Positions 1,702 to 16,573 of a stretch of DNA of 59,509 bases are shown in pieces. Made by a program: the position numbers and the translations under genes. The stretch covers positions 1 to 59,509 of the forward strand of contig JAUNQH010000007.1 of assembly GCA_030536295.1 (NCBI GenBank). The letters are read 5' to 3'. Source of the stretch: Clostridia bacterium. GTDB lineage: Bacteria; Bacillota; Clostridia; Christensenellales; Aristaeellaceae. How positions within the stretch are numbered: the first letter of the stretch is position 1; the number at the start of each line of letters is the position of its first letter. The notes beneath the pieces are model-generated. The model did not search any database and was not told the DNA's origin. It was given only the letters and a program-made list of their open reading frames with translations.

Positions 1702-1731
1702 TTGATTTTCTGACATATTTTGTCTTATAAT
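1702..1731 (+). promoter_or_regulatory. Promoter of the LysM peptide gene
   Basis: TTGATT at 1702-1707 and TATAAT at 1726-1731 are separated by 18 bases, about 40 bases before the start codon of the LysM peptide. The surrounding 1660-1770 stretch is clearly AT-richer than the flanking genes. Confidence 0.7.
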
Positions 1732-1770
1732 AGAGCAAATCAATGACCAACTTGAAAGGAGCAATGATCT

Positions 1771-2028
1771 ATGGATAACGAAATTCTGGAACTCAAAGAT
1801 GAAATGCTGGATGAGGTCTCCGGCGGCGCCAAGAAACTGGATCCCAAGAAGCTGACCTGGAACAAGCACAGGACCTACACTGTTGTGAAGGGCGACAGCC
1901 TGGCCAGGATCGCCAACAAGATCGGCATCCCGTGGCAGACCCTGTACGCGCACAACAAGCAGTTCCCGAATCCGCGCCTGATCCACGTCGGCGACAAGGT
2001 CAACATTCCCGACCAGGCAAAGATCTGA
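1771..2028 (+). CDS. Double-glycine-leader peptide carrying a LysM domain
   Basis: The 85-residue product begins with a strong AAAGGAG site nine bases before ATG 1771. Residues 1-19 form a bacteriocin-type leader ending EMLDEVSGG. Relative to the cut site, L at -12, L at -7, V at -4 and GG at -2/-1 fit the double-glycine consensus; only the usual E at -8 is M. Residues 34-80 are one LysM domain (TYTVVKGDSLARIANKIG ... VGDKVNIP), the fold that binds N-acetylglucosamine polymers such as peptidoglycan. Predicted processing would release a 66-residue basic LysM protein. The gene has its own promoter and a strong terminator, then an exporter pair and two NRPS-like genes. A decayed second copy lies at 11,783-11,848. 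No C39 leader peptidase is encoded in the window, so cleavage in trans, or a leader used only for recognition, must be assumed. Confidence 0.85.
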   Translation: MDNEILELKDEMLDEVSGGAKKLDPKKLTWNKHRTYTVVKGDSLARIANKIGIPWQTLYAHNKQFPNPRLIHVGDKVNIPDQAKI

Positions 2029-2098
2029 TCCCTGAATGCTGAAAAAGAGCCGCTTCGCCAATAAAGCGAAGCAGCTCTTTTTTTGTTCCGGTCAAGGC
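1971..2098 (+). repeat. Direct repeat, left copy (end of LysM gene plus terminator)
   Basis: The last 19 codons of the LysM peptide, its stop, the terminator hairpin and about a dozen bases beyond recur at 11,791-11,917 with only a handful of substitutions. The two copies enclose the exporter and NRPS genes. Confidence 0.9.
2043..2085 (+). terminator. Rho-independent terminator after the LysM peptide
   Basis: An inverted repeat GAGCCGCTTCGC / GCGAAGCAGCTC, with a seven-base loop and one mismatch, is followed by seven T residues. Most transcripts from the 1702 promoter should end here, so the exporter genes would depend on read-through or on their own promoter. Confidence 0.9.
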
Positions 2099-2184
2099 CG
2101 GACGAGATCTCTGCAGGCGGACAAAAGATTGGCCAAAAACAACATAAAACGCAACTACCGATATACACCGGTCACTTTCCGTAG

Positions 2185-2190
2185 TATAAT
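2185..2190 (+). promoter_or_regulatory. Possible -10 box ahead of the exporter operon
   Basis: A perfect TATAAT lies 45 bases before the exporter start in an AT-rich stretch, but no good -35 hexamer is visible 16-18 bases upstream. The promoter would be weak or activator-dependent. Confidence 0.35.
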
Positions 2191-2234
2191 AACAGATTAA
2201 TAAACAGTATTATTGAAACGGAGATGGATCTGTT

Positions 2235-3977
2235 TTGTCGATCATATGGGATCAAATGAAAAAATATGCCCGTCAACTGCTGATCCTTCTGCTGATGGTG
2301 ATCGTTACAACATGCTGCACAATGGCCTGGCCGCGCCTTTTGGCGGTGCTTGTGGATACGGCGATACCCGCGCAAAACAAGGGGCAGGTGTTTCTGGCAT
2401 GCGGCCTGATGCTGGCTGTCGCGGGTGTCGGTCTCCTCTGCGGGATCATGAAAAGCCGTTTCAGCGCGTATATCGCCATGAGCATCGGCAGGGATCTGAG
2501 GAGCCGGGTGTTCACAAAGGTCATTTCCTTCAGCAGGAGCGAGATCGACCGTTTTTCCGTGTCTTCGCTGATCGCGCGCACCAATAAGGATGTCGCGCAG
2601 ATCCAGATCTTCCTGAACGAATGTCTGGCCATCGCGCTCAGCGCGCCCCTGCTGTGCATAACTTCGGTCATAATGTGCGTCGCCCAGAGTCCGTCCCTTT
2701 CGCAGGTGCTGCTTGTCGCGATCCCGGTCATCATACTGATCGTGTCAATGGTCGGCTGGATCTGTCTGCCGCTGAATCTGAAGATCCAGAATTGTTCCGA
2801 CCGGATCAACCTGCTGACCCGGGAAAAGCTGACCGGCGTCCGCGTGATCCGCGCCTTCGGAACGATGAAGATCGAAAATGACAGGTTCGACACGGTCAAT
2901 CACGAAAACCGCCGCCTGAATCTGAAGTCCCAGCGGATCCTCGGGTTGATCAACGCGCTGCTTACGCTGGTCCTGGCGCTGAGCGCCGCCGCCGTGATGT
3001 ATCTTGCCGCCGTGCAGAGCACCGCCGGCGGCGGGGATTACACCACCGGCGAGGTCATGGCTATCGTCACGTACGTTCTGCAGATCATGTACGCCGTTGT
3101 TATGCTGACGGTCGTGTTTCTGACGCTGCCGGCGGCAGCCGCCTCCGCGAGACGCGTGAAGGAGGTCCTGGACAGCCGCGCGGAGATCGTGAGCGCCGAG
3201 CATCCGGCGGAGCCCGGCAGCGTGAAGGGGCAGCTTGAATTCCGCGACGTTTCCTTTACCTATCCGGGCTCGGATACGCCGGCCATTCAGGGGCTTTCGT
3301 TCACCGCGGCGCCGGGTGAGACCACCGCGATCATCGGCGGCACCGGTATGGGCAAGACCACCATTGTGAACCTGATCCCCCGCCTTTATGACGTGACGGA
3401 AGGCTCCGTGCTGGTGGACGGGATCGATGTGCGCGATTATGACCTGTCCGTTCTCCGGAACAAGATCGGCTTTGTACCGCAGATGGCCAACCTGTTTGCC
3501 GGCACCGTCCGCGATAATATCGCTTTCGGAAACAGGAATGCCGGCGGAGAAGAGATCGAGGAAGCGGCTGCCGTCGCGCAGAGCACGGACTTCATTCTGA
3601 CAAAGGAAGACGGCTTTGACGCCCGCGTCGCGCAGCGCGGCTCCAATCTTTCCGGCGGCCAGAAGCAGCGCCTCGCCATCGCGCGGGCACTGGTCCGCAA
3701 GCCCGAGATCTATGTTTTTGATGACAGCTTTTCCGCGCTGGATTTCAAAACGGACAAAGCGCTTCGCGGCGCGCTGAAGGAACAGCTTGCCGCCCGCGAG
3801 GCGACCGCCGTCATCGTCGCGCAGCGCGTTTCCACCGTCATCGACGCGGACCGGATCATCGTTGTGGATGCCGGCAGGATCATGGGGATCGGAAAGCATG
3901 ATGAACTGATGAAGACCTGCCCGGTCTACCGTGAGATCGCCGAATCCCAGCTGGGCAGAGAGGAGGCGGTATCATGA
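2235..3977 (+). CDS. ABC exporter half-transporter, degenerate-site subunit
   Basis: This 580-residue type IV ABC exporter has six membrane helices in about residues 10-300 and a nucleotide-binding domain from about 325. Visible motifs are Walker A GGTGMGKTT, Q-loop VPQMANLF, intact signature LSGGQKQR and Walker B VFDDSFSALD. Asp replaces the catalytic Glu, and the switch His is Gln (VAQRVST). These are the marks of the degenerate partner in heterodimeric exporters such as TM287/288 or LmrCD. There is no N-terminal C39 peptidase domain, since the first helix begins almost at once. The start is TTG 2235 with CGGAG upstream; Met 2256 is possible but has no clear ribosome binding site. The end overlaps the next gene by ATGA, so the two are translationally coupled. 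The likely cargo is the product of the adjacent synthetases or the LysM peptide (inference). Confidence 0.88.
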   Translation: MSIIWDQMKKYARQLLILLLMVIVTTCCTMAWPRLLAVLVDTAIPAQNKGQVFLACGLMLAVAGVGLLCGIMKSRFSAYIAMSIGRDLRSRVFTKVISFSRSEIDRFSVSSLIARTNKDVAQIQIFLNECLAIALSAPLLCITSVIMCVAQSPSLSQVLLVAIPVIILIVSMVGWICLPLNLKIQNCSDRINLLTREKLTGVRVIRAFGTMKIENDRFDTVNHENRRLNLKSQRILGLINALLTLVLALSAAAVMYLAAVQSTAGGGDYTTGEVMAIVTYVLQIMYAVVMLTVVFLTLPAAAASARRVKEVLDSRAEIVSAEHPAEPGSVKGQLEFRDVSFTYPGSDTPAIQGLSFTAAPGETTAIIGGTGMGKTTIVNLIPRLYDVTEGSVLVDGIDVRDYDLSVLRNKIGFVPQMANLFAGTVRDNIAFGNRNAGGEEIEEAAAVAQSTDFILTKEDGFDARVAQRGSNLSGGQKQRLAIARALVRKPEIYVFDDSFSALDFKTDKALRGALKEQLAAREATAVIVAQRVSTVIDADRIIVVDAGRIMGIGKHDELMKTCPVYREIAESQLGREEAVS

Positions 3978-5755
3978 CGGAAAAAACGGATAAGGAAAAG
4001 ACCGGCCGCCCGTTCTCCAGACTGGCGGGCTTCATGAAGCCGTACCGGGTGAAGCTGATCATCGCTTTCGTGCTGATCCTGCTGGATGTGACCGCGTACT
4101 CCCTCGCGCCTCTGTTTCTGGGCTACGCGATCGACTCGCTGGGCCGGATCCTCACGCATACCGATCTCCCGCTCGAAAACGGGATCTTCTTTGTCTGCCT
4201 GCTGGAGATGGTCGCCGCTTACGGTCTGAGCGCCCTGTTCTGCTATATCGACGGCCGTCTTCTGTCATCGGTCGCCGAAAACACCGTTCATGACCTCAGG
4301 GAGGCGATCAGCCGGAAACTGGACCGGCTTCCGCTGAATTACTATGACTCCCATCCGTACGGTGATATCCTTTCCCGCGTCACCAATGATATCGACCTGA
4401 TCGCCTCCGCGCTGCAGGTGAGCATCGGACAGGTGCTGCGCTCCGTTTTCACGGTGCTGATCCTGCTTGTCACCATGCTGTTCATCAATGTTCCGCTCAC
4501 GCTCATCGGGCTGGCTACCATACCGGTCTGCCTGTTTGTCGCCGCGAAGATCGCGGGAAAGAGCCAGACGGAATTTGACCGGCAGCAGGAGCAGACCGGA
4601 ACGCTGAACGGCTATGTGGAGGAATACTATACCGGGCAGAACGTGGTGGCCGTCTGCGGACGTGAGGACACGGTGACCGAAACGTTTGAAAGGATCAACG
4701 ACGAGCTTTTCGGATCCTCGCGCAGGGGGGCTTTCCTTGCCGATGTGCTGACGCCCGTGGTCGAGGGCACCGCCAATATCGGCTATATGCTGGTCTGCTT
4801 CGCCGGTGCCCTCATGGCCATTGCCGGAGGTCTCTCCGTCGGTATGATCCAGGCCTTTACACAGTATCTTTCACAGTTCACGATGGCGATCGCCGAGACA
4901 GCCTCCGTCGCGGGGATCCTTCAGTCCACCGCTTCCGCCTCGGGCAGGGTCTTTGAGTTTCTGGATGAGCCGGAGGAATCCGGCGACCCCGAGCCCGGCG
5001 CTTTCCCCGCGCGCGTGCGCGGCCGTGTGCGGTTCGATCATGTGTGTTTCGGCTATACCCCGCAGCAGACGCTGATCCATGACCTGAACGTTACGGTGGA
5101 GCCCGGTGAGAAGATCGCGATCGTCGGTCCCACCGGCGCCGGGAAAACGACGCTTGTGAACCTGATCATGCGCTTTTATGATGTCCGCGGCGGCGCGATC
5201 CTGATCGACGGAACGGATATCCGCGAAATGAAGCGTGAGCGCCTGCGGGAGCTTTTCGGCATGGTGCTGCAGGAGACCTGGCTGTTCAGCGGCACGATCA
5301 TGGAAAACATCCGCTACGGCAAGCCGGACGCGACGGATGAGGAGGTCGAGGCAGCCGCGCGGAAGGCGCATGCCGACGCTTTCATCCGCACCCTTCCGGA
5401 CGGATATCAGTTCACGCTGCAGGAAGGCGCGGAAAACATCGCGCAGGGACAGCGTCAGCTGCTGACCATCGCCCGCGCGATCCTTTCGGACGCGCCCATC
5501 ATGATCCTGGACGAAGCCACCTCCTCCGTGGATACCCGCACCGAGGTTCTGATCCAGGAGGCCATGGCGGAAGTGATCAAGGGACATACCTCCTTTGTGA
5601 TCGCGCATCGCCTGTCCACGATACGCGACGCCTCCAGGATCATGTATATGCAGAACGGAGATATTCTTGAGATCGGCAGCCATGAGGAACTGATGAAGAA
5701 AAACGGACTGTACGCGAATCTCTACCGCTCGCAGTTTTCGGAAAACAACGAATGA
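3974..5755 (+). CDS. ABC exporter half-transporter, catalytic-site subunit
   Basis: This 593-residue partner of the preceding gene has six helices in about residues 25-320 and a nucleotide-binding domain from about 345. It has Walker A GPTGAGKTT, a canonical Walker B with catalytic Glu (MILDEATSSVD) and a canonical switch His (IAHRLST). Its signature is degraded to AQGQRQ instead of LSGGQ. Together the two half-transporters form one good ATP site (this Walker A/B plus the partner's LSGGQ) and one degenerate site. This is the asymmetric arrangement known for heterodimeric multidrug and peptide exporters. Its start lies inside the previous stop (ATGA). Substrate unknown; synteny points to the LysM/NRPS product. 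Confidence 0.88.
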   Translation: MTEKTDKEKTGRPFSRLAGFMKPYRVKLIIAFVLILLDVTAYSLAPLFLGYAIDSLGRILTHTDLPLENGIFFVCLLEMVAAYGLSALFCYIDGRLLSSVAENTVHDLREAISRKLDRLPLNYYDSHPYGDILSRVTNDIDLIASALQVSIGQVLRSVFTVLILLVTMLFINVPLTLIGLATIPVCLFVAAKIAGKSQTEFDRQQEQTGTLNGYVEEYYTGQNVVAVCGREDTVTETFERINDELFGSSRRGAFLADVLTPVVEGTANIGYMLVCFAGALMAIAGGLSVGMIQAFTQYLSQFTMAIAETASVAGILQSTASASGRVFEFLDEPEESGDPEPGAFPARVRGRVRFDHVCFGYTPQQTLIHDLNVTVEPGEKIAIVGPTGAGKTTLVNLIMRFYDVRGGAILIDGTDIREMKRERLRELFGMVLQETWLFSGTIMENIRYGKPDATDEEVEAAARKAHADAFIRTLPDGYQFTLQEGAENIAQGQRQLLTIARAILSDAPIMILDEATSSVDTRTEVLIQEAMAEVIKGHTSFVIAHRLSTIRDASRIMYMQNGDILEIGSHEELMKKNGLYANLYRSQFSENNE

Positions 5756-5789
5756 TCTCCCCGCGCGGCGCGCTGAAAGGATGATAAAG

Positions 5790-8789
5790 ATGAAACCGAT
5801 GATGAGCTATTTCATGGAGAATGTTGACCGGATCCCCGACCGGAAAGCGGTCGCGGTCCCGGGGCAGGGTTCGTGCACTTTTGCCGAGCTGGACCGGCAA
5901 TCAGCCAGGGTATACCGCTATCTGACGGAGAAGGGCATCGGGAAGGAAGATTTTGTGATGCTCTGCCTGCCGCGGTCCTTCTGGGCGGTCGTCTGCATGG
6001 TCGGCGTATGGAAAGCCGGCGCTGCCTTTACCATGGTCGAGGACACCTACGCGCCGGACCGGATCCGCTTCATCTATGAGGACAGCGGCTGCAAGCTGAA
6101 GATCGATATGGATACCGTGCAGCGGATCCTTGAGCTGGAGCCCCTGCCCGGATACCGTGAAGCGCAGCTGCATGACGCGGCTTTCGCGGTGTACACCTCC
6201 GGCACCACCGGGAACCCCAAGGGCGTGCTGCATGAGTACGGCAACCTGATGACCGGCGTGGAGGAGAGCATGGTCTCCGAATCCGAAGGGACCGCGCTGC
6301 TTGAGACAGATGATCTCGATGTATTCGGTCTCCTCGCGCCGCTGAATTTCGTGGCGAGCATCATTTCCGTGCTTGATACGCTGATCTACGGAACGACGCT
6401 GGTCATCATCCCCTATGCCGTTGCCAAGGATTTCCGCAAACTGAAGGACTGCATGCTCAGCGAGCGCATCACCAGCATCTTCATGACCGCGGCCTATGTG
6501 CGGCTGTATGACAACTGGAGCCCTTACCTGAAAACGGTCTACTTCGGCAGCGAGCCGGCCAACGGGCTTTCCATCAAAGGGCCGGAGCTGTTCAATGTTT
6601 ACAGCCTCAGCGAATGCGGTTTCGATATCTGCGCGTTCAGGCTGGATAAGGCCTATGATCCCGCGCCCATCGGAAAGCCGATGCCCGGCCGCACCGTTTA
6701 TCTGCTCGATGAAAACGGGAACCCCGTGCAGCAGGGTGAGACCGGCGAGATCTGCGTAGCCGTACCCTATGTGCGCGGCTACATCAATCTGCCTGAACGC
6801 ACCGCGGAGACCTTCCGCGGCGGGATCCTGCACTCCGGCGACCTGGCGCGGACGGACGCGGACGGCAACTACTATATCGTCGGCCGCAGGGATGACATGA
6901 TCAAGATCAACGGCAACCGCGTGGAGCCCGCCGAGACCGAGACCGTGTTCCGTGAGCTGTCCGGTCTGCGCACCGTGGTGGTCAAGGGATTCAGCGATGA
7001 GAGCAGGGCCTGCCTGTGCCTGTATTATCTGCGCGCGGAAGCGGAAGCGCTGCCGGACTTCCGGCTGGATGACCTGAAGCAGCGCATGTCGGAGCGCCTT
7101 CCCTACTATATGATCCCCTCGTATTTTGTGGCGCTGGAGGAGATGCCGCTGAACCCCAACGGCAAGCTGAACAAAAAAGCGCTGACTTTGCCCGAGGCCG
7201 TGGACTACCGCGCCGAGTACGCCGCCCCCGAAAACGAAACGGAGCGCCTGCTGTGTGATACCTTTGCCAAAGCGCTGAAGCTGGACCGCGTGGGCGCCAA
7301 TGATGACTTTTATCTTATCGGCGGCGATTCCATGTCCGCCATCGCCGCGGTCACCGGCTGCGCGCTGGACGGGCTGAGCATTACCGACCTGTATGAAGGA
7401 CGCACGCCGCGGAAGATCGCGGCCCGCTGGCTTGACCGGCGGAATGATCCGGAAGATCCTGCCGAAACGCGGGAAGAAGACCTGCGCGGGGAATGGGCAT
7501 TGCTGCCGGAACAGCAGCACGTGCTGGATGATCAGCTTACCCGCCCGGAGTCGACCGTATGGCTGCTGCCCGGCGCGCTGCGCCTGAAGGACGGTACGGA
7601 TCCCGAACGCTTTGCCGCGGCCGTGAACAAAGCGATCCGCAATCATCCGTCCCTTGCCGCGGTGCTGTGCTTCAGCGGCGAAGCCGCGCAGGTGCAGCGT
7701 TACGCGCCCGAGCTTCTGCCCGTTGTCACCGTAACGGATATCCCTGAGGATGAACTGCAGGAAAGAATAAACGGCATGACCTGCCCGTTCCGCCTGTTCG
7801 ATTCCTGCCTTTGCAGATTTGAAGTTTTCCGCACCGAAAACGGCAGCTATTTCGTCTGGGTGATCCACCACCTGATATTCGACGGAACCTCCATGGGGCT
7901 GCTGTTTGACAGCATCGTGGCCTGTTACGCCGACCCGGATTGCCAGCTGAGACCCGATTACTACTTCTCCATGCTGAAAAGGCAGGCGCTTGCCGAAAAA
8001 AGCAGCCTCTTCGAAGAAACGGAGCTGTACTACCGCAGGAACTATGAGGATCGCATGCATCCGGAAAAATGGATGCTGCTGTTCCGATCGGATCCCGGGC
8101 AGGAAGCAGAGGGGTTGGACGTTGACTATTGCAGGCTTAAGTTCGGGCGTGAGGAGATCATGGCCTCCGCCGCGTGGAAGCAGATCGGTTTCAACGGCCT
8201 GTATCTCGCCTCGCTGATGCTTGCCCAGAGCATCTATAACGATGTTCCCTACGGCATCATCGGCTGGCTGCACAACGGCCGCACGGACGCTTACTCTCTG
8301 GCCTCCTGCGGTCTGCTCTTCCGCTGCTTCATGATCCTTGAACCGGACATGCGCGATATCACCCTGAAGCAGCTGCTGCAGGATATGCACAGCCAGATGG
8401 ATTATTCGCTGTCGCACAACTGCTATGGGTATCCCTACCGCAGCCGCGCGCCGCTGGACATGGTATGCAACCTTCTGTATCAGGAGAAGATCTATGACAC
8501 CGGCAGCATGGATGACCTCACCGAAGAAAGCCCCTTCGAGCCGCCGGAATCAAGAGACATCATCATACCTTTAGGCATGGAAGTGCGGGATAACATGGAC
8601 GGCAATGACCCCCTCGCTATCGTCGCGTATGACAGCGCCATGTACGCGCCTGAGAGTGCGGGATTCGTATTACTCCTGTTCTGCGCGTGCCTGCGGGAAA
8701 TGATCTCCGTCACGGATCCTGACCGCGTCACCCTCCGCGAGATCGCGGACCGCGCGCTGAAAGCGGCGGAAAGCGAAGCCGAAGAGTAA
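5790..8789 (+). CDS. NRPS-like protein, adenylation-thiolation-condensation (first)
   Basis: The likely start is ATG 5790, with GAAAGG nine bases upstream; ATG 5781 directly abuts that site. About 999 residues. The adenylation domain spans residues ~1-480 with YTSGTTGNPKGV, NVYSLSECGF, HSGDLARTD, GRRDDMIKINGNRVEPAE and the A10 lysine in NPNGKLNKKAL. A thiolation domain follows with YLIGGDSM; the phosphopantetheine Ser is codon 7329-7331. A condensation domain fills the C-terminal 430 residues, with an intact HHLIFDG (HHxxxDG) beginning at codon 7866. Where amino-acid-activating domains usually show FDAS, this one shows FVAS, so the Asp that binds the alpha-amino group seems to be missing. The activated acid may therefore not be an ordinary alpha-amino acid (inference). 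No thioesterase or reductase is present. It is a clear tandem paralogue of the next gene. Confidence 0.88.
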   Translation: MKPMMSYFMENVDRIPDRKAVAVPGQGSCTFAELDRQSARVYRYLTEKGIGKEDFVMLCLPRSFWAVVCMVGVWKAGAAFTMVEDTYAPDRIRFIYEDSGCKLKIDMDTVQRILELEPLPGYREAQLHDAAFAVYTSGTTGNPKGVLHEYGNLMTGVEESMVSESEGTALLETDDLDVFGLLAPLNFVASIISVLDTLIYGTTLVIIPYAVAKDFRKLKDCMLSERITSIFMTAAYVRLYDNWSPYLKTVYFGSEPANGLSIKGPELFNVYSLSECGFDICAFRLDKAYDPAPIGKPMPGRTVYLLDENGNPVQQGETGEICVAVPYVRGYINLPERTAETFRGGILHSGDLARTDADGNYYIVGRRDDMIKINGNRVEPAETETVFRELSGLRTVVVKGFSDESRACLCLYYLRAEAEALPDFRLDDLKQRMSERLPYYMIPSYFVALEEMPLNPNGKLNKKALTLPEAVDYRAEYAAPENETERLLCDTFAKALKLDRVGANDDFYLIGGDSMSAIAAVTGCALDGLSITDLYEGRTPRKIAARWLDRRNDPEDPAETREEDLRGEWALLPEQQHVLDDQLTRPESTVWLLPGALRLKDGTDPERFAAAVNKAIRNHPSLAAVLCFSGEAAQVQRYAPELLPVVTVTDIPEDELQERINGMTCPFRLFDSCLCRFEVFRTENGSYFVWVIHHLIFDGTSMGLLFDSIVACYADPDCQLRPDYYFSMLKRQALAEKSSLFEETELYYRRNYEDRMHPEKWMLLFRSDPGQEAEGLDVDYCRLKFGREEIMASAAWKQIGFNGLYLASLMLAQSIYNDVPYGIIGWLHNGRTDAYSLASCGLLFRCFMILEPDMRDITLKQLLQDMHSQMDYSLSHNCYGYPYRSRAPLDMVCNLLYQEKIYDTGSMDDLTEESPFEPPESRDIIIPLGMEVRDNMDGNDPLAIVAYDSAMYAPESAGFVLLLFCACLREMISVTDPDRVTLREIADRALKAAESEAEE

Positions 8790-8826
8790 AAGCAGGAATG
8801 ATCACATAAAAAAGGAGTAAATGGCC

Positions 8827-11778
8827 ATGCTGAACATGCTTGAAATGTTTGAAGAGAACGTGAAAAACTTTCCGGAACGGATCGCGCTCAGATCCGTGGG
8901 AGAGGTGACCAAAAGCCTGACCTTCCGCGAAGCGGATGAGTATTCCGGCAGAGTCTATGCCTGGCTGAAAGCGAATGGTTATGGCAAAGAGGATTTTGTG
9001 ATGATCTGTCTGCCCCGCGGGATCATGACGGGCGTGTGCGTGCTGGGCATCCTGAAGGCGGGCGCCGCTTTCGTGATCGTGGAGGACAATTACGCGCCGG
9101 AGCGGATCAGCTTCATTGAAAAGGACTGCGGCTGCAAGCTGAAGATCGACGCGGCCCTGCTGCTTGAGATCATGAAGACGCCGCCGCTCTCCGGGCACGA
9201 GCAGGCGGATCCCCATGACGCCGCCTACGCGGTCTACACCTCCGGCACCACAGGGAACCCCAAGGGTGTGCTGCATGAATACGGCAACATCTCGGAATAT
9301 CTGGAATCCGGAAACAACGAGGGGAAGATCCTCATCGCCCCCGGCGATGTGTTTGCCCTGATCGCGCCGCTGAACTTCATCGCCAGCGCCATGACCTTCT
9401 TCGGCACTTTATCCCGGGGTGCTACAATGATCATCCTGCCCTATGTCATCACCCGTGATGCGAAGCAGCTGATCCGCGTGCTGAATGCCGAAATGGTCAC
9501 CACGATGTTCATGCCGGCGGCCTATGTGCGCCTGTATGACAACTGGAGCCCCTATCTCAAACGCGTCCTGTTCGGCAGCGAACCGGCCAACGGTCTGTCC
9601 CTGAACGGCGTGGAGCTTTACAATGTCTACGGCATGAGCGAATGCGGATTTGACGTATGCTCCTTCCGCATCGATCATGCCTATCCGCAGGCGCCCATCG
9701 GCAAACCGCAGTTCGACAAGCGTGTTTTCCTGCTGGATGAAAACGGGCAGCCGGCCGAAAAGGGCGCGATGGGCGAGCTTTGCGTCGACGATCCGTATGT
9801 CCGCGGATATATCAACCTGCCCGAAAAGACCGCGCAGGTGTTTGTTGACGGAGTCTATCACACCGGCGATCTGGCCCGGATGGATGAGAACGGGCTGCTG
9901 ACGATCGTCGGCCGTAAAGACGATATGATCAAGATCAACGGCAACCGGATCGAGCCGGCCGAGATCGAAGCCTGCTGCCGCAAGGTACTGGGCGTGCGCA
10001 CCGTGGTCGCCAAGGGCTTTTCCAACACGCAGCGCGCGTGGATCTGCCTGTATTACCTGAACAAGGAAGCCGCGGCCGCCGGCCTGCTGGATGAAAGCGG
10101 CGCGCTGAAGCTGTCCGTGGACGCCATCCGGAAGCAGCTGGACCGGATGCTGCCCTATTATATGATCCCGACCTATTATGTCGGCCTGGACGCGCTGCCG
10201 CTGAACCCCAACGGCAAGCTGAACAAAAAGGCCCTGGAGTCCCCGGCCGCGGATGAATTCATGGAGCAGTACATCGCCCCCACCGATCCCGTGCAGCAGA
10301 AGATCTGCGACGCTTTCGCGTCCGTGCTCGGTCTGGAGCGCGTCGGCATCCGGGATGATTTCTATCTCATCGGCGGCGACTCCATGAACTCAATCAAAAT
10401 GCTCTCGCTGTGCGGTCTGCCCGGGCTCTCCGTGATGGATCTGATGCAGAACCATACCGCGGAAAAGCTGGCGCGGCTCTACCGCGACCGCTACGGCGAC
10501 AGCGGCAATGATATCGCCGCGGATAATGAACGCGCGCTGCATCAGCCGCAGATCCTGCTGCCGGAGCAGATCAATGTTGTGGACAACCAGTTCATCCGGG
10601 GCAAATCCACCATGTGGAACCTTTTCTCCCTGGTGCGCCTTGCCGCGGATGTCCGCGCGGAAGATTTCGCGGCGGCCGTCGGCAAGGTGATCCGGAGCCA
10701 CCCCGCGCTGCTGTCCGTCATCCGTTTCGCCACGGTCGGCCGCCGGGAAGAGCTGGTGCTGGAATATCATCCGGAGCTGTTCCGCGATGTGCCCGTGCTG
10801 GATATCACCGAGCAGGAGCTGGAGGAAAAGAAAGCGGATCTGGTCCGGTATTATCAGCTCATGAACTCCCTGCTCTACAGGGCGGAGATCTACAGGACCG
10901 AAAAGGCAAGCTATTTCTTCTTCGATGTGCATCATACCCTGTTTGACGGCACCAGCTATAAAGTCTTCCTGGATGACCTGGAAAAGGCACTTGCGGATCC
11001 CGACGCGGAACCGGAAAAGGATTATTTCTATCTGGAGCTGAGCCGCGAGCAGCAGCTCCGCGAAAGCTCATTCCTTACGGAAACGGTCAGCGCGTATGAC
11101 AAGCGCTTTGCCGGCACCGATCCGGAGCAGCTGGTCGTCCGTCCGGACAGGCAGACCATGGCCAGGGCTTACGGTTCGTTCCATGCCGACCTGCCGGCGG
11201 ATAAGGCCGCGGTCACCGCGAGCCCGCTGTACCGCAAGCTCGGCGGCAACACCTTCTTCATGACCGCCATGATGCTTGCCGTCGCCGAATACAACCATTC
11301 GCCGAAAGCGGCCGTGCAGTGGATCTACAACGGCCGTGATGAGATGACGAAGCAGCATATCACCGGTCTGATGTACAAGACCATGCCGGCGATCATTGAC
11401 CTGAGCGGCGATCCCGCCCTGCAGGATGTGTGTGACGATGTGCTTGAGCAGGTCCGCTACGGCGCCGCGCACAACAGCTGTCCGTACGTTTACCTGTCCG
11501 GCATGGCCGATGCCAATGTTCCCTGCTTCCTGTATCAGAATGATATGTATTCCGTCTTTGACCGTCCGTGCTTCAACGGCCTGGTGGAGCTTCCCGAACA
11601 GAAGGCGGCTTCCGACGCCTCCTTTGAGCTGGAGCTGATCGACAACGCGAAGGATGACTGCTTCCATGTGAGCATCGAGTATTCCGCCGCGGCCTACCGC
11701 GAGGAGAGCGTGGAAACGGTGTTCAGTCTCTTTACGAAGCATGTTCTCAGGCTCATGGCCGAAGGCGGTCAACACTGA
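8827..11778 (+). CDS. NRPS-like protein, adenylation-thiolation-condensation (second)
   Basis: ATG 8827 lies nine bases after AAAGGAG and is preferred over ATG 8821, which is only three bases away. About 983 residues. The layout matches the preceding gene: an adenylation domain with YTSGTTGNPKGV, NVYGMSECGF, HTGDLARMD, GRKDDMIKINGNRIEPAE and NPNGKLNKKAL; a thiolation domain with YLIGGDSM (Ser codon 10,381-10,383); and a C-terminal condensation domain with HHTLFDG (first His codon 10,930). The adenylation halves of the two proteins are nearly superimposable, while the condensation halves diverge more, so the pair arose by tandem duplication. The usual FDAS motif is FIAS here. A C-terminal condensation domain without a following module could join the bound acyl group to an amine on a separate acceptor. 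The gene ends directly against the LysM pseudogene remnant. Confidence 0.88.
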   Translation: MLNMLEMFEENVKNFPERIALRSVGEVTKSLTFREADEYSGRVYAWLKANGYGKEDFVMICLPRGIMTGVCVLGILKAGAAFVIVEDNYAPERISFIEKDCGCKLKIDAALLLEIMKTPPLSGHEQADPHDAAYAVYTSGTTGNPKGVLHEYGNISEYLESGNNEGKILIAPGDVFALIAPLNFIASAMTFFGTLSRGATMIILPYVITRDAKQLIRVLNAEMVTTMFMPAAYVRLYDNWSPYLKRVLFGSEPANGLSLNGVELYNVYGMSECGFDVCSFRIDHAYPQAPIGKPQFDKRVFLLDENGQPAEKGAMGELCVDDPYVRGYINLPEKTAQVFVDGVYHTGDLARMDENGLLTIVGRKDDMIKINGNRIEPAEIEACCRKVLGVRTVVAKGFSNTQRAWICLYYLNKEAAAAGLLDESGALKLSVDAIRKQLDRMLPYYMIPTYYVGLDALPLNPNGKLNKKALESPAADEFMEQYIAPTDPVQQKICDAFASVLGLERVGIRDDFYLIGGDSMNSIKMLSLCGLPGLSVMDLMQNHTAEKLARLYRDRYGDSGNDIAADNERALHQPQILLPEQINVVDNQFIRGKSTMWNLFSLVRLAADVRAEDFAAAVGKVIRSHPALLSVIRFATVGRREELVLEYHPELFRDVPVLDITEQELEEKKADLVRYYQLMNSLLYRAEIYRTEKASYFFFDVHHTLFDGTSYKVFLDDLEKALADPDAEPEKDYFYLELSREQQLRESSFLTETVSAYDKRFAGTDPEQLVVRPDRQTMARAYGSFHADLPADKAAVTASPLYRKLGGNTFFMTAMMLAVAEYNHSPKAAVQWIYNGRDEMTKQHITGLMYKTMPAIIDLSGDPALQDVCDDVLEQVRYGAAHNSCPYVYLSGMADANVPCFLYQNDMYSVFDRPCFNGLVELPEQKAASDASFELELIDNAKDDCFHVSIEYSAAAYREESVETVFSLFTKHVLRLMAEGGQH

Positions 11779-11782
11779 CAGA

Positions 11783-11848
11783 CTCCCTGATCCGCGCCTG
11801 ATCCAGATCGGCGATAAGGTCAACATTCCCGACCGGGCAAAGATCTGA
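11783..11848 (+). pseudogene. Truncated second LysM peptide gene (3' end only)
   Basis: In a frame different from the upstream synthetase, this stretch encodes LPDPRLIQIGDKVNIPDRAKI and then stop. That matches the last 21 residues of the LysM peptide (FPNPRLIHVGDKVNIPDQAKI) with six changes. The leader and the first two-thirds of the LysM domain are missing and there is no start codon. Similarity stops within a few bases of the synthetase stop codon (11,776-11,778), marking a recombination junction. The remnant still carries the copied terminator. It shows that the locus once held a second precursor gene, or that the synthetase block was inserted between duplicated precursors. Confidence 0.85.
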
Positions 11849-11917
11849 TCCCTGAATGCTGAAAAAGAGCCGCTTCGCAAATAACGCGAAGCAGCTCTTT
11901 TTTGGTTCCGGTCAAGA
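11791..11917 (+). repeat. Direct repeat, right copy
   Basis: This is the counterpart of 1971-2098. The coding tail, stop codon, spacer CCCTGAATGCTG and terminator stem are nearly unchanged; similarity fades after GGTCAAG. Together the copies bracket 9.7 kb. Confidence 0.9.
11863..11903 (+). terminator. Rho-independent terminator closing the exporter/NRPS operon
   Basis: The inverted repeat GAGCCGCTTCGC / GCGAAGCAGCTC plus six T residues duplicates the terminator at 2043-2085. It now serves as the end of the synthetase operon. The remaining 11,920-12,192 is AT-rich and non-coding, with no convincing promoter. Confidence 0.88.
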
Positions 11918-12192
11918 CCGCCCGGTCAGGGTCTTTTCCTGCCCGGCCGCGTTTTCCGTGCAGTGCCTGATCTTTACTTTTTTGAAAAAGGTAGACTTTT
12001 AGCTCTGCAGGGGTGTAAAATAAAAAAAGGCATTGAAGCATTGTTTTGATGTCATTCAAGAACATTGATCATTCCGCTTTGGATAATCTGTTTTCCGCGT
12101 GAAAGGCGTGGATATTGTCTGCTTTTGCAAAAAGTACGCGGCGCCGGCCGAAAAGGAACGGTACATGCTATTGAATACCGAGGAGAAAAGGA

Positions 12193-14805: not shown

Positions 14806-15756
14806 TTATTCGTTTACAGCCGCCAGAATATTCAGGTTGCGCACATCTCCGTCCGCGATCCGGTCATTCACGGAATACGCGTGCTTTTCAAGATCGCCGC
14901 ATACAGCCTCCGTCAGCTGCTGATCCTGAAGCTCATCGATCATATCCGCCGCGATCTCTTCGATCACCGCGTATTTCCGCTCCGCGGCCGCGTCGTCCCT
15001 GCAGTCGCCGAAAAGCAGAAAGCCCAGCTTATCCGCGAACCGCTCCATTCCGTAAAGCTGACGAAGCGCGCGGAAACACCATTTGTAATACGGCGCGTAC
15101 CGGTTCCGCAGCAGGAAGACGTTCCGGATCGCGGCATTCACGAACTGCACGCAGGCGAGCTGCGCCGCTTCCGGTTCGCCATGCTTCAGGCAGCGGACGA
15201 AATTATACTGCCCGGCCTGCGCCATGATCAGCAAATTCCCGGCAACGCGCTTGAGCCGGATATCCTCCGGCATGCAGATCAGCTTTTCCCTGATGCCGGA
15301 AAACGCCCCGAGGTTGTCGAAAAACACTTCGCCGTTGACTGCCTCGGCCAGCGCGTAGTCCGGCAGCGTCAGCCACTGCCGTGCCGTCAGCTTCCCGTCT
15401 GCCGCCCCGACCGCTTTCAGATAAAAATCCGCCGTCCTGATCACGCCGTTCCGGCTGCCGCCGACGGGTGAAAGCGGCTGACGCTTCAGCCCCGCGTATT
15501 CCTTCGGCAGCTTCGCGTAGGCCCGCTCCAGGCGGAAGGCCTGCCTGCGGTCGATCACATCCTCCCCGGGCAGGAAGATGCAGAACCCCGGTTCAAAGTC
15601 ATGATCCCGTGATATCTCATCGTCAAAGCCGAAGCGTTCCGATCCGTTACCGACAAGACCCGCCGCGAGATACGGCAGCAGATCGGCAAACTCATTCTCC
15701 AGCATCGGCCTGCCGAAGGCTTCATAATAACCTTTCGCGATCTCAAGCCCGTTCAT
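14806..15756 (-). CDS. DUF4037 nucleotidyltransferase-like protein
   Basis: This 316-residue protein has the nucleotidyltransferase-like core motif GSERFGFDDEISRDHDFEPG near residues 37-56. The pattern is GSxxxGxDDExSRDHD, typical of DUF4037 proteins. The remainder is helical, with the LNEMIG-free, Tyr-rich C-terminal part seen in that family. No substrate is established for the family, so no function is assigned beyond a probable nucleotidyltransferase fold. Its start overlaps the end of the upstream TPR gene by 14 bases, so the two are co-translated and probably work together. There is no signal peptide, so it is cytoplasmic. Confidence 0.75.
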   Translation of the reverse strand: MNGLEIAKGYYEAFGRPMLENEFADLLPYLAAGLVGNGSERFGFDDEISRDHDFEPGFCIFLPGEDVIDRRQAFRLERAYAKLPKEYAGLKRQPLSPVGGSRNGVIRTADFYLKAVGAADGKLTARQWLTLPDYALAEAVNGEVFFDNLGAFSGIREKLICMPEDIRLKRVAGNLLIMAQAGQYNFVRCLKHGEPEAAQLACVQFVNAAIRNVFLLRNRYAPYYKWCFRALRQLYGMERFADKLGFLLFGDCRDDAAAERKYAVIEEIAADMIDELQDQQLTEAVCGDLEKHAYSVNDRIADGDVRNLNILAAVNE

Positions 15757-16573
15757 AGATCTCCCCTGCTCTCCGTTTCAGCTCCTGTTCCGCGGCGAAC
15801 CAGCCGTAGTGCCCGAAAACAGGCGCGCATTTTTCACATACAAAAGCATAGTGCCCGTCCCGCGGCAGTCCTTCCGTATCCAGAAGCGCCTCCGCTTCCG
15901 CCAGGTACCCGTCGATCCTTTCAGCCCCGTTCTCCGGCCCTGCTTCCGCTTCCGTAAGATCGGCCAGATTCAGCAGCGTCACGGCGATCTCCGGCTCGCC
16001 GCCGGCCTGTTTCCGCATCACGCCGATCGCCTTGTGATACAGCGCCTCCGCCTCACGGTATTCCTTCAGCCCGGAAAGCGTAACGGCCATATTGTTGTAA
16101 AGCCCGCCGAGCCGTTCATCATCCGGCTGCAGGCAGGTCTCATAGATGCTCCGCGCCCCGCGGTAAAGCTTCAGCGCCTCCTCCGTCCGGCCGAAGGCCC
16201 TGTATCCCGTGGCGGCGTTGATCAGCGTTGTGCCGTAAGACACGGTGCCGCCGATCTCCATGCCGTCCGCCAGCGCGAGGGCGTCCGCAACGGCCTGCAG
16301 GCATTCCTGCCCCCTGTTCATCTTGCGGTACAGGCCGATCATCTCATTGAGCACGGTCAGCCTGCCGCGCGCGTCGCCGCTGCTCTCCGCTTCCGCGAGC
16401 CAGTACCGCAGATGGCGTTCGGCGGCGGACCAGTCATTGCGGCTGAGATGCTGATCCAGCTTTTCAATGACTCTCCCCGCGGGGATCGGTCTGATCTCCG
16501 GGTGCATATTCAGCAGGCACTGAGGTTCTTTGTAGTCCTCCCCGGACAAAGGGCGGCCGTTCACATCATTCAT
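15743..16573 (-). CDS. Tetratricopeptide-repeat protein
   Basis: This 276-residue cytoplasmic protein is built of TPR helices, with repeat cores around residues 55-200. Visible examples are LINAATGYRAFGRTEEALKL, LYNNMAVTLSGLKEYREAEA and VTLLNLADLTEAEAG. No catalytic motif is seen. It overlaps the DUF4037 gene by 14 bases, a pairing that suggests a scaffold or sensor for that enzyme (inference). No regulatory domain is visible. Confidence 0.8.
   Translation of the reverse strand: MNDVNGRPLSGEDYKEPQCLLNMHPEIRPIPAGRVIEKLDQHLSRNDWSAAERHLRYWLAEAESSGDARGRLTVLNEMIGLYRKMNRGQECLQAVADALALADGMEIGGTVSYGTTLINAATGYRAFGRTEEALKLYRGARSIYETCLQPDDERLGGLYNNMAVTLSGLKEYREAEALYHKAIGVMRKQAGGEPEIAVTLLNLADLTEAEAGPENGAERIDGYLAEAEALLDTEGLPRDGHYAFVCEKCAPVFGHYGWFAAEQELKRRAGEIYERA

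What the first reader, a model, noticed from the sequence alone, without database searches (positions are those of the whole stretch)
1702..11917. Candidate hybrid system: double-glycine-leader LysM peptide, heterodimeric exporter and two A-T-C synthetases
Seen: an 85-residue peptide joins a classic double-glycine leader (EMLDEVSGG) to a full LysM domain. It is followed by an ABC exporter pair and two adenylation-thiolation-condensation proteins, and a remnant of the same peptide gene ends the block. Known: double-glycine leaders direct bacteriocin-type export and cleavage by C39 peptidases; LysM binds peptidoglycan. Inference: the LysM peptide may be an exported wall-binding carrier, or the acceptor that the C-terminal condensation domains modify. 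A LysM domain as the core of a leader peptide next to NRPS genes is not an arrangement I know.
Basis: partly seen in the sequence, partly recalled or inferred. Interest (0 to 1): 0.85.

Follow-up and report, generated by a model that had tools for sequence, protein, structure and literature searches.

The report
Leader-guided LysM wall-binding peptide family
A bacterium encodes a tiny protein with a cell-wall-binding domain and an export tag normally seen on bacteriocins; it belongs to a family that seems to go with a known peptide exporter, while the neighbouring peptide-synthetase genes look like an unrelated unit that merely sits next to it.

Summary
In detail: an 85-aa double-glycine-leader LysM peptide (1771-2028), a C39-less ABC exporter pair, two A-T-C proteins, and the tail of a second LysM gene. 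The peptide has its own promoter-like and terminator-like sites. Of 40 peptide loci fetched from 21 relatives, 0 hold A-T-C genes or a close ABC pair. Of 80 named A-T-C homologues, 0 hold the peptide; many sit with STAS, carboxylesterase and SpoIIE genes. The ABC pair is a common type, and none of 29 homologous loci adjoins A-T-C.

What emerges is a leader-LysM family: at least 22 of 200 genomes of the bacterial family. The three copies here are this genome's only Pfam LysM hits. 4 of 40 loci lie beside an NHLM-type C39 exporter; C39 occurs in 19 of 22 leader-LysM genomes against 63 of 178 others. This genome's own exporter, on another contig, passes TIGR03796's cut-off. Classical NHLP leaders pass theirs in 1 of 200 genomes. 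Best reading: a free, basic LysM domain exported by the NHLM system without Sec, beside an unrelated NRPS/ABC operon that ends at a remnant LysM terminator. Export and function are unproven.

The parts
1702..1731 (+). promoter-like site of the peptide gene (TTGATT-18-TATAAT)
   Evidence: consensus scan, 10 of 12 matches; consensus match only
1771..2028 (+). double-glycine-leader LysM peptide, 85 aa; leader residues 1-19 (GG at 18-19), core 66 aa, net charge +9, calculated pI 10.3
2052..2080 (+). terminator-like hairpin (stem 2052-2072) and T run ending the peptide unit
   Evidence: consensus match only
2162..2190 (+). promoter-like site before the ABC / A-T-C genes (TATACA-17-TATAAT)
   Evidence: consensus match only
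2235..3977 (+). ABC exporter subunit a (580 aa), no C39 domain; Asp at the Walker B catalytic position (VFDDSFSALD)
   Evidence: residue read from the sequence, motif meaning recalled
3974..5755 (+). ABC exporter subunit b (593 aa), no C39 domain; degenerate signature (IAQGQ), Glu at Walker B (ILDEATSSVD)
   Evidence: residue read from the sequence, motif meaning recalled
5781..8789 (+). A-T-C protein 1 (1002 aa), stand-alone adenylation-thiolation-condensation
   Evidence: Pfam AMP-binding, PP-binding, Condensation
8821..11778 (+). A-T-C protein 2 (985 aa)
   Evidence: Pfam; alignment to LgrA
11784..11920 (+). 3' remnant of a second LysM-peptide gene: about the last 20 codons plus its terminator (stem 11872-11892), now just downstream of A-T-C 2

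Best explanation
Two unrelated units lie side by side. (1) The LysM peptide is one of three paralogues in this genome of a leader-LysM peptide family. The leader is proposed to route it to the NHLM-type C39 exporter encoded on another contig, which would cut after GG and release a free, strongly basic LysM domain that binds peptidoglycan outside the cell (of its own or of other bacteria). (2) The ABC pair and two A-T-C proteins form a separate operon that makes and exports a small non-ribosomal product, probably not from ordinary alpha-amino acids. It lies between an intact LysM gene and the tail of a second one, most likely after recombination in a tandem LysM array, and the first terminator-like hairpin after it is the remnant's. 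Shown: the family, the leader, exporter linkage and co-occurrence, absence of A-T-C linkage in the relatives examined. Inferred: cleavage, export, wall binding, the A-T-C product, the recombination history.
For: All 3 Pfam LysM hits in this genome are short leader-GG peptides on three contigs. Leader-covering matches in at least 22 of 200 family genomes, 11 genera, often tandem. GG invariant in 48 aligned members. 4 of 40 fetched peptide loci have MFP-like + C39 + ABC2-like genes, the ABC2-like gene ending 0.1-1.3 kb from the peptide. C39 in 19 of 22 leader-LysM genomes against 63 of 178 others, p = 9e-6. Own-genome exporter: TIGR03796 873.7 bits, cut-off 853.3. NHLP leader over cut-off in 1 of 200 genomes, own genome 0; own Nif11 0. 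Core pI over 8 in 47 of 48. A-T-C: 0 of 80 named loci with the peptide; COesterase within 300 bp downstream in 50, STAS within 200 bp upstream in 35. ABC pair: homologues in 182 of 200 genomes; 0 of 29 other homologous loci read adjoin A-T-C.
Against: In this genome the exporter is on another contig and no leader peptide was found beside it, so pairing is by family pattern only. 36 of 40 peptide loci show no adjacent C39 exporter (6 of the 40 are under 6 kb long). The co-occurrence test ignores kinship, and the family profile contains the leader, so leader conservation in the 48 members is partly selected. C39 was not found in 3 of 22 leader-LysM genomes (72-87% complete). The own ABC2-like gene is below its cut-off (683 against 709.4) and the HlyD-like match is weak (22 bits, cut-off 156). 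A-T-C-like matches are enriched at genome level. This genome is 67% complete; the 137-nt repeat could be an assembly joint.
Confidence: 0.72

Rival explanations
1. One hybrid system: the A-T-C proteins attach an acyl or aminoacyl group to the LysM core (or use it as carrier) and the adjacent ABC pair exports it.
For: Adjacency in the window; the remnant on the far side frames the block; A-T-C-like matches enriched in leader-LysM genomes, 8 of 22 against 18 of 178; one of 80 named A-T-C loci, L137, has a C39/ABC2 exporter about 4.6 kb downstream, and one, L135, an ABC pair about 4.3 kb away on the other strand.
Against: 0 of 40 peptide loci with an A-T-C match or an ABC match over 250 bits; 0 of 80 named A-T-C loci with a leader-LysM peptide; the pair has no C39 domain; separate promoter-like and terminator-like sites; the stretches read around the two other own LysM peptides show neither neighbour.
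Confidence: 0.06
2. The leader-LysM peptides are class II bacteriocin-like killers of neighbours, with the LysM core as the toxic part.
For: Leader type, small basic core (median charge +6), tandem paralogues; one of 48 members matches the cerein-type class IIb model weakly.
Against: No recurring immunity-like neighbour found among neighbours clustered at 4 or more loci; I recall no lytic activity for LysM alone.
Confidence: 0.3
3. The peptides act on the producer's own wall (wall decoration, hydrolase regulation, surface adaptor), not as weapons.
For: LysM is a peptidoglycan-binding domain (recalled); SpoIIE/STAS genes in 6 of 40 peptide loci; no immunity-like neighbour found.
Against: Patchy distribution and tandem copies, two of them shortened or frame-broken (L020, L086), look more like conflict genes than housekeeping.
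Confidence: 0.4
4. The GG motif is chance: a cytosolic or spore-type small LysM protein.
For: The LysM part matches a SafA-type model below its cut-off.
Against: Leader present in all 3 own LysM hits found without it and in 11 genera; in a 398-genome phylum sample 366 genomes have matches, but among the matches listed only this genome's begin before model position 16 (GG at about 22-23).
Confidence: 0.07

Closest known systems
NHLM export system with NHLP / Nif11-type precursors (TIGR03796/03797/03794 with TIGR03793/03798; Haft et al. 2010, PMC2887384: start of abstract and passages seen)
   Same: C39-ABC + ABC2 exporter with a HlyD-like partner, Gly-Gly cleavage motif, multiple paralogous precursors
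   Different: Leader is short (median 23 aa in 48 members), no TIGR03793 match; core is a LysM domain instead of a heterocyclisable or lanthionine core; no recurring modification enzyme found
Class II (double-glycine) bacteriocins
   Same: Short acidic leader ending in GG, small basic core
   Different: Core is a LysM domain; no recurring immunity-like gene found and no exporter operon around the window's copy
LysM-containing secreted fungal effector Ecp6 (best PDB match of the profile)
   Same: Secreted protein built of LysM domains that binds N-acetylglucosamine polymers (function recalled)
   Different: Bacterial, a single LysM, proposed leader/C39 route instead of a signal peptide
Stand-alone A-T-C NRPS proteins, largely of rumen and gut Clostridia (80 named loci)
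   Same: Same domain order and similar length, 38-41% identity
   Different: The window has two in tandem behind an ABC pair, without the STAS, carboxylesterase and MATE partners

Membership tests
LysM domain (PF01476) | match over curated cut-off | tested here: met
   47.7 bits, cut-off 20.9
Double-glycine leader peptide | acidic leader with hydrophobic register ending in GG | tested here: met
   MDNEILELKDEMLDEVSGG; GG invariant in 48 members; cleavage itself not tested
NHLP precursor (TIGR03793) | nitrile-hydratase-like leader | tested here: not met
   not among the NCBIfam hits of the peptide nor of the 48 members; own genome 0
NHLM export system | C39-ABC over TIGR03796 cut-off in the genome | tested here: met
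   873.7 bits, cut-off 853.3
NHLM export system | ABC2 (TIGR03797) and HlyD (TIGR03794) over cut-off | tested here: inconclusive
   683 bits against 709.4; 22.2 bits against 156.2
NHLM export system | precursor clustered with exporter | tested here: inconclusive
   4 of 40 fetched peptide loci of relatives; not so in this genome
Class II bacteriocin | immunity gene next to precursor | tested here: inconclusive
   at 4 or more loci only exporter-type genes and a ~60-aa AAG-ending protein (5 loci) recur; two further clusters lie antisense to exporter genes; rarer or unrelated immunity genes would be missed
Class II bacteriocin | antimicrobial activity | not testable with these tools
   needs a bench assay
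Modified RiPP | maturase beside the precursor | tested here: inconclusive
   no recurring enzyme among neighbours clustered at 4 or more loci
Amino-acid-activating NRPS module | Asp that holds the alpha-amino group (GrsA D235; number and role recalled) | tested here: not met
   Ile in A-T-C 2 opposite Asp in LgrA; Val or Ile in 89 of 89
Amino-acid-activating NRPS module | carrier GGDS and condensation HHxxxDG motifs | tested here: met
   GGDS; HHLIFDG and HHTLFDG

The most novel reading that the evidence does not exclude
Leader-LysM peptides are an undescribed main cargo class of NHLM-type exporters in this bacterial family: a Sec-independent route that ships free, strongly basic wall-binding domains (LysM and, in one genome of a related family, bacterial SH3) out of the cell, in part under SpoIIE/STAS switches. 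They would answer what many NHLM exporters without NHLP or Nif11 precursors carry.
Probability: 0.5. Interest if true: 0.68.

Novelty: new variant of a known kind. Interest (0 to 1): 0.52.

Why it matters
Haft et al. reported that the NHLM export system is spread more broadly than the NHLP family and that this leaves further precursor families to be found (PMC2887384, passages). In this bacterial family a C39 match occurs in 82 of 200 genomes, NHLP leaders pass their cut-off in 1 (10 at E <= 0.001), and leader-LysM peptides occur in at least 22. If the pairing holds, it names cargo for orphan exporters and shows a peptide exporter handling an intact wall-binding domain, which one deletion and one mass spectrum could test.

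Tried and rejected
Hybrid A-T-C / LysM system: rejected on 0 of 40 and 0 of 80 linkage. One of the 80 named A-T-C loci, L183, does hold a LysM protein, but a 426-aa lysozyme-type one (glycosyl hydrolase 25 plus LysM), not a leader peptide. Three of the 40 peptide loci (L078, L082, L098) hold weaker ABC matches of 103-183 bits. Empty site: the stretch 14806-16000 has matches in 34 of the 44 other genus genomes (my count, whose tally of 37 of 45 includes this genome and two matches elsewhere); in the 14 fetched (of 34), the window's left-flank genes, LysM, A-T-C and glycosyltransferases gave no match at E <= 1e-6 over my 60-bit filter, and only ABC matches of 27-38% appeared, so the insertion could not be read as before/after. 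Leader-SH3 peptides: one clear case (L227; Pfam SH3_3 39.7 bits, cut-off 27); a family-wide search listed only SH3 matches in frames of 174 aa or more. Virus carriage: the viral scan could not run and I did not go on. Structure prediction: unavailable twice, so no fold model is used. Base composition does not set the block off sharply (GC 0.54-0.62 at 2-12 kb, 0.50-0.53 at 12-15 kb). Papers: nine searches (82 was on the A-T-C neighbourhood) gave no paper that I could see to describe a double-glycine-leader LysM peptide; the library holds open-licence papers only. I saw passages of PMC2887384, PMC13289728, PMC3482391, PMC11322243, PMC3873254 and PMC10100652; all other papers only as listings. 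The passages of the last five do not describe such a peptide. The name of the window's family was not established by any search; the records of the 80 named A-T-C homologues are mostly uncultured Clostridia-type MAGs, many labelled rumen or gut.

Full report
What is there. The 85-residue peptide at 1771-2028 has an acidic leader ending in GG and one complete LysM domain. The ABC genes at 2235-5755 are a pair without a C39 peptidase hit. The two A-T-C proteins at 5781-11778 are 44% identical paralogues. The far remnant (11784-11920) is the tail of a LysM gene with its terminator.

Two units, not one. A promoter-like site lies before the peptide (1702-1731), a terminator-like hairpin after it (2052-2072), and another promoter-like site before the ABC genes (2162-2190) (consensus matches only, 11 promoter-like sites against 4.3 expected, 14 terminator-like against 9.1). 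The A-T-C 2 stop codon ends at 11778, five bases before the repeat copy at 11784, so the first terminator-like hairpin after the operon is the remnant's own (a second, weaker one is listed at 12094-12112). The two repeat copies differ by a few, mostly conservative codon changes, and within the hairpin only in the loop. That fits a second functional paralogue that lost its 5' part better than a fresh duplication. Tandem leader-LysM genes are found in relatives (for example L068, L071, L083, L087, L093). That the operon entered such an array is an inference.

The peptide is a family. Pfam LysM finds three places in this genome, and all three are short peptides with a GG leader, on three contigs; this search did not use the leader. 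A profile of the three finds matches that begin within the first 8 model positions and reach through the LysM part in at least 22 of 200 genomes of the family, in 11 genera (my count from the listed rows, which are cut off at weaker scores, so a lower bound). An alignment of 48 members keeps GG in all; because the profile contains the leader, this is partly selected. In a sample of 398 genomes of the phylum, 366 have matches, but among those listed only this genome's begin before model position 16, with GG at about 22-23 (capped list). Cores have median charge +6 (range 0 to +13) and pI over 8 in 47 of 48. No NCBIfam model takes the window peptide over its cut-off; the models matched by the 48 members are mostly LysM-bearing families, with three leader-type models matched once each (no cut-offs shown there).

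The likely exporter. This genome has one C39 match, on another contig: a C39-ABC protein over the TIGR03796 cut-off, followed by an ABC2-like protein below its cut-off and preceded by a short protein with a weak HlyD-type match. Among 40 peptide loci that I fetched from 21 of the 22 leader-LysM genomes, 4 (L080, L088, L093, L094, from four genomes) hold the same trio with the ABC2-like gene 0.1-1.3 kb from the peptide; in L088, L093 and L094 a SpoIIE-type gene lies next to it. C39 is found in 19 of 22 leader-LysM genomes and 63 of 178 others (Fisher p = 9e-6, no kinship correction); the three exceptions are 72-87% complete. NHLP leaders pass their cut-off in 1 of 200 genomes and neither NHLP nor Nif11 is found in this genome. 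Against: 36 of 40 loci show no adjacent exporter (6 of the 40 are under 6 kb), and in this genome the pairing is only by pattern.

The synthetases belong to something else. A carboxylesterase gene follows within 300 bases in 50 of 80, a STAS gene precedes within 200 bases in 35, SpoIIE-type genes lie in 31 loci, MATE genes in 18. L135 has a pair like ABCa/ABCb on the other strand about 4.3 kb away, and L137 a C39/ABC2 exporter about 4.6 kb downstream. Among 17 unnamed A-T-C loci, two of them from this genome, none has the peptide or an ABCa/ABCb match over 150 bits. The residue that holds the substrate's alpha-amino group in ordinary A domains is Val or Ile in 89 of 89 aligned proteins, the two of the window included (role recalled), so the substrate is probably not an ordinary alpha-amino acid. 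Result against separation: A-T-C-like NRPS matches are enriched in leader-LysM genomes, 8 of 22 against 18 of 178 (p = 0.0026); this count includes large NRPS genes.

The exporter pair is common. ABCb matches at E <= 1e-120 occur in 182 of 200 genomes. This genome has a second pair, 62 and 67% identical, on contig C15, with no A-T-C or LysM match in the 14 kb read; its downstream side runs off the contig after about 600 bases. Of the 30 loci given, 29 are not the window's; all show both subunits (one of them, L282, only partly) and none shows A-T-C in its flank of at most about 1.5 kb; the LysM test there used E <= 1e-8 and would miss distant peptides. The pair lacks C39, so by itself it should not cut the GG leader.

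Judgement. The window holds an adjacency of two units that looks accidental, one of which belongs to a family that I could not find described. The most useful result is that leader-LysM peptides may be missing cargo of NHLM exporters in this bacterial family. Export, cleavage, wall binding and any killing are untested.

Noticed in passing
L227:11438-11701 (genome G242, another family of the order): A GG-leader peptide whose core is a bacterial SH3 domain instead of LysM (Pfam SH3_3 39.7 bits, cut-off 27); a family-wide search listed no second clear case.
   Followed up: partly
L073:1846-2043, L068:419-634, L232:11917-12108, L234 (two), L235, L236, L240; weaker in L088, L093, L094: A ~60-aa protein (FDYQKFEG...RELSxDELxxVSAAG) near NHLM exporters and leader-LysM genes; its end looks like the leader but with AAG instead of GG; one member has no Pfam match. 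Possibly a leader mimic or regulator.
   Followed up: partly
L123-L202: Stand-alone A-T-C proteins share a recurring neighbourhood: STAS, carboxylesterase, SpoIIE-HATPase and MATE genes (one MATE protein carries a HATPase domain).
   Followed up: partly
window 5781-11778 and 87 relatives: A domains carry Val or Ile where ordinary amino-acid-activating domains have Asp (89 of 89).
   Followed up: yes
L017:1232-1744 (genome G076): Two leader-LysM copies in one frame, beside further tandem copies.
   Followed up: no
L291:615-4140 (own genome, contig C15): A second ABC pair, 62 and 67% identical to the window's, without A-T-C or LysM match in the stretch read.
   Followed up: partly
L003:1408-1644 (own genome, contig C75): A leader-LysM paralogue just upstream of a response-regulator gene (Pfam Response_reg + Trans_reg_C).
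   Followed up: partly
window 14806-16573: Two minus-strand genes found in all 14 genus genomes fetched here, 49-59% identical; the genes upstream in the window were not found beside them, so this may mark the edge of a variable region.
   Followed up: partly
L137 9614-21943: STAS, A-T-C and carboxylesterase genes followed by a short HlyD-like, C39-ABC and ABC2-like exporter in one locus.
   Followed up: partly
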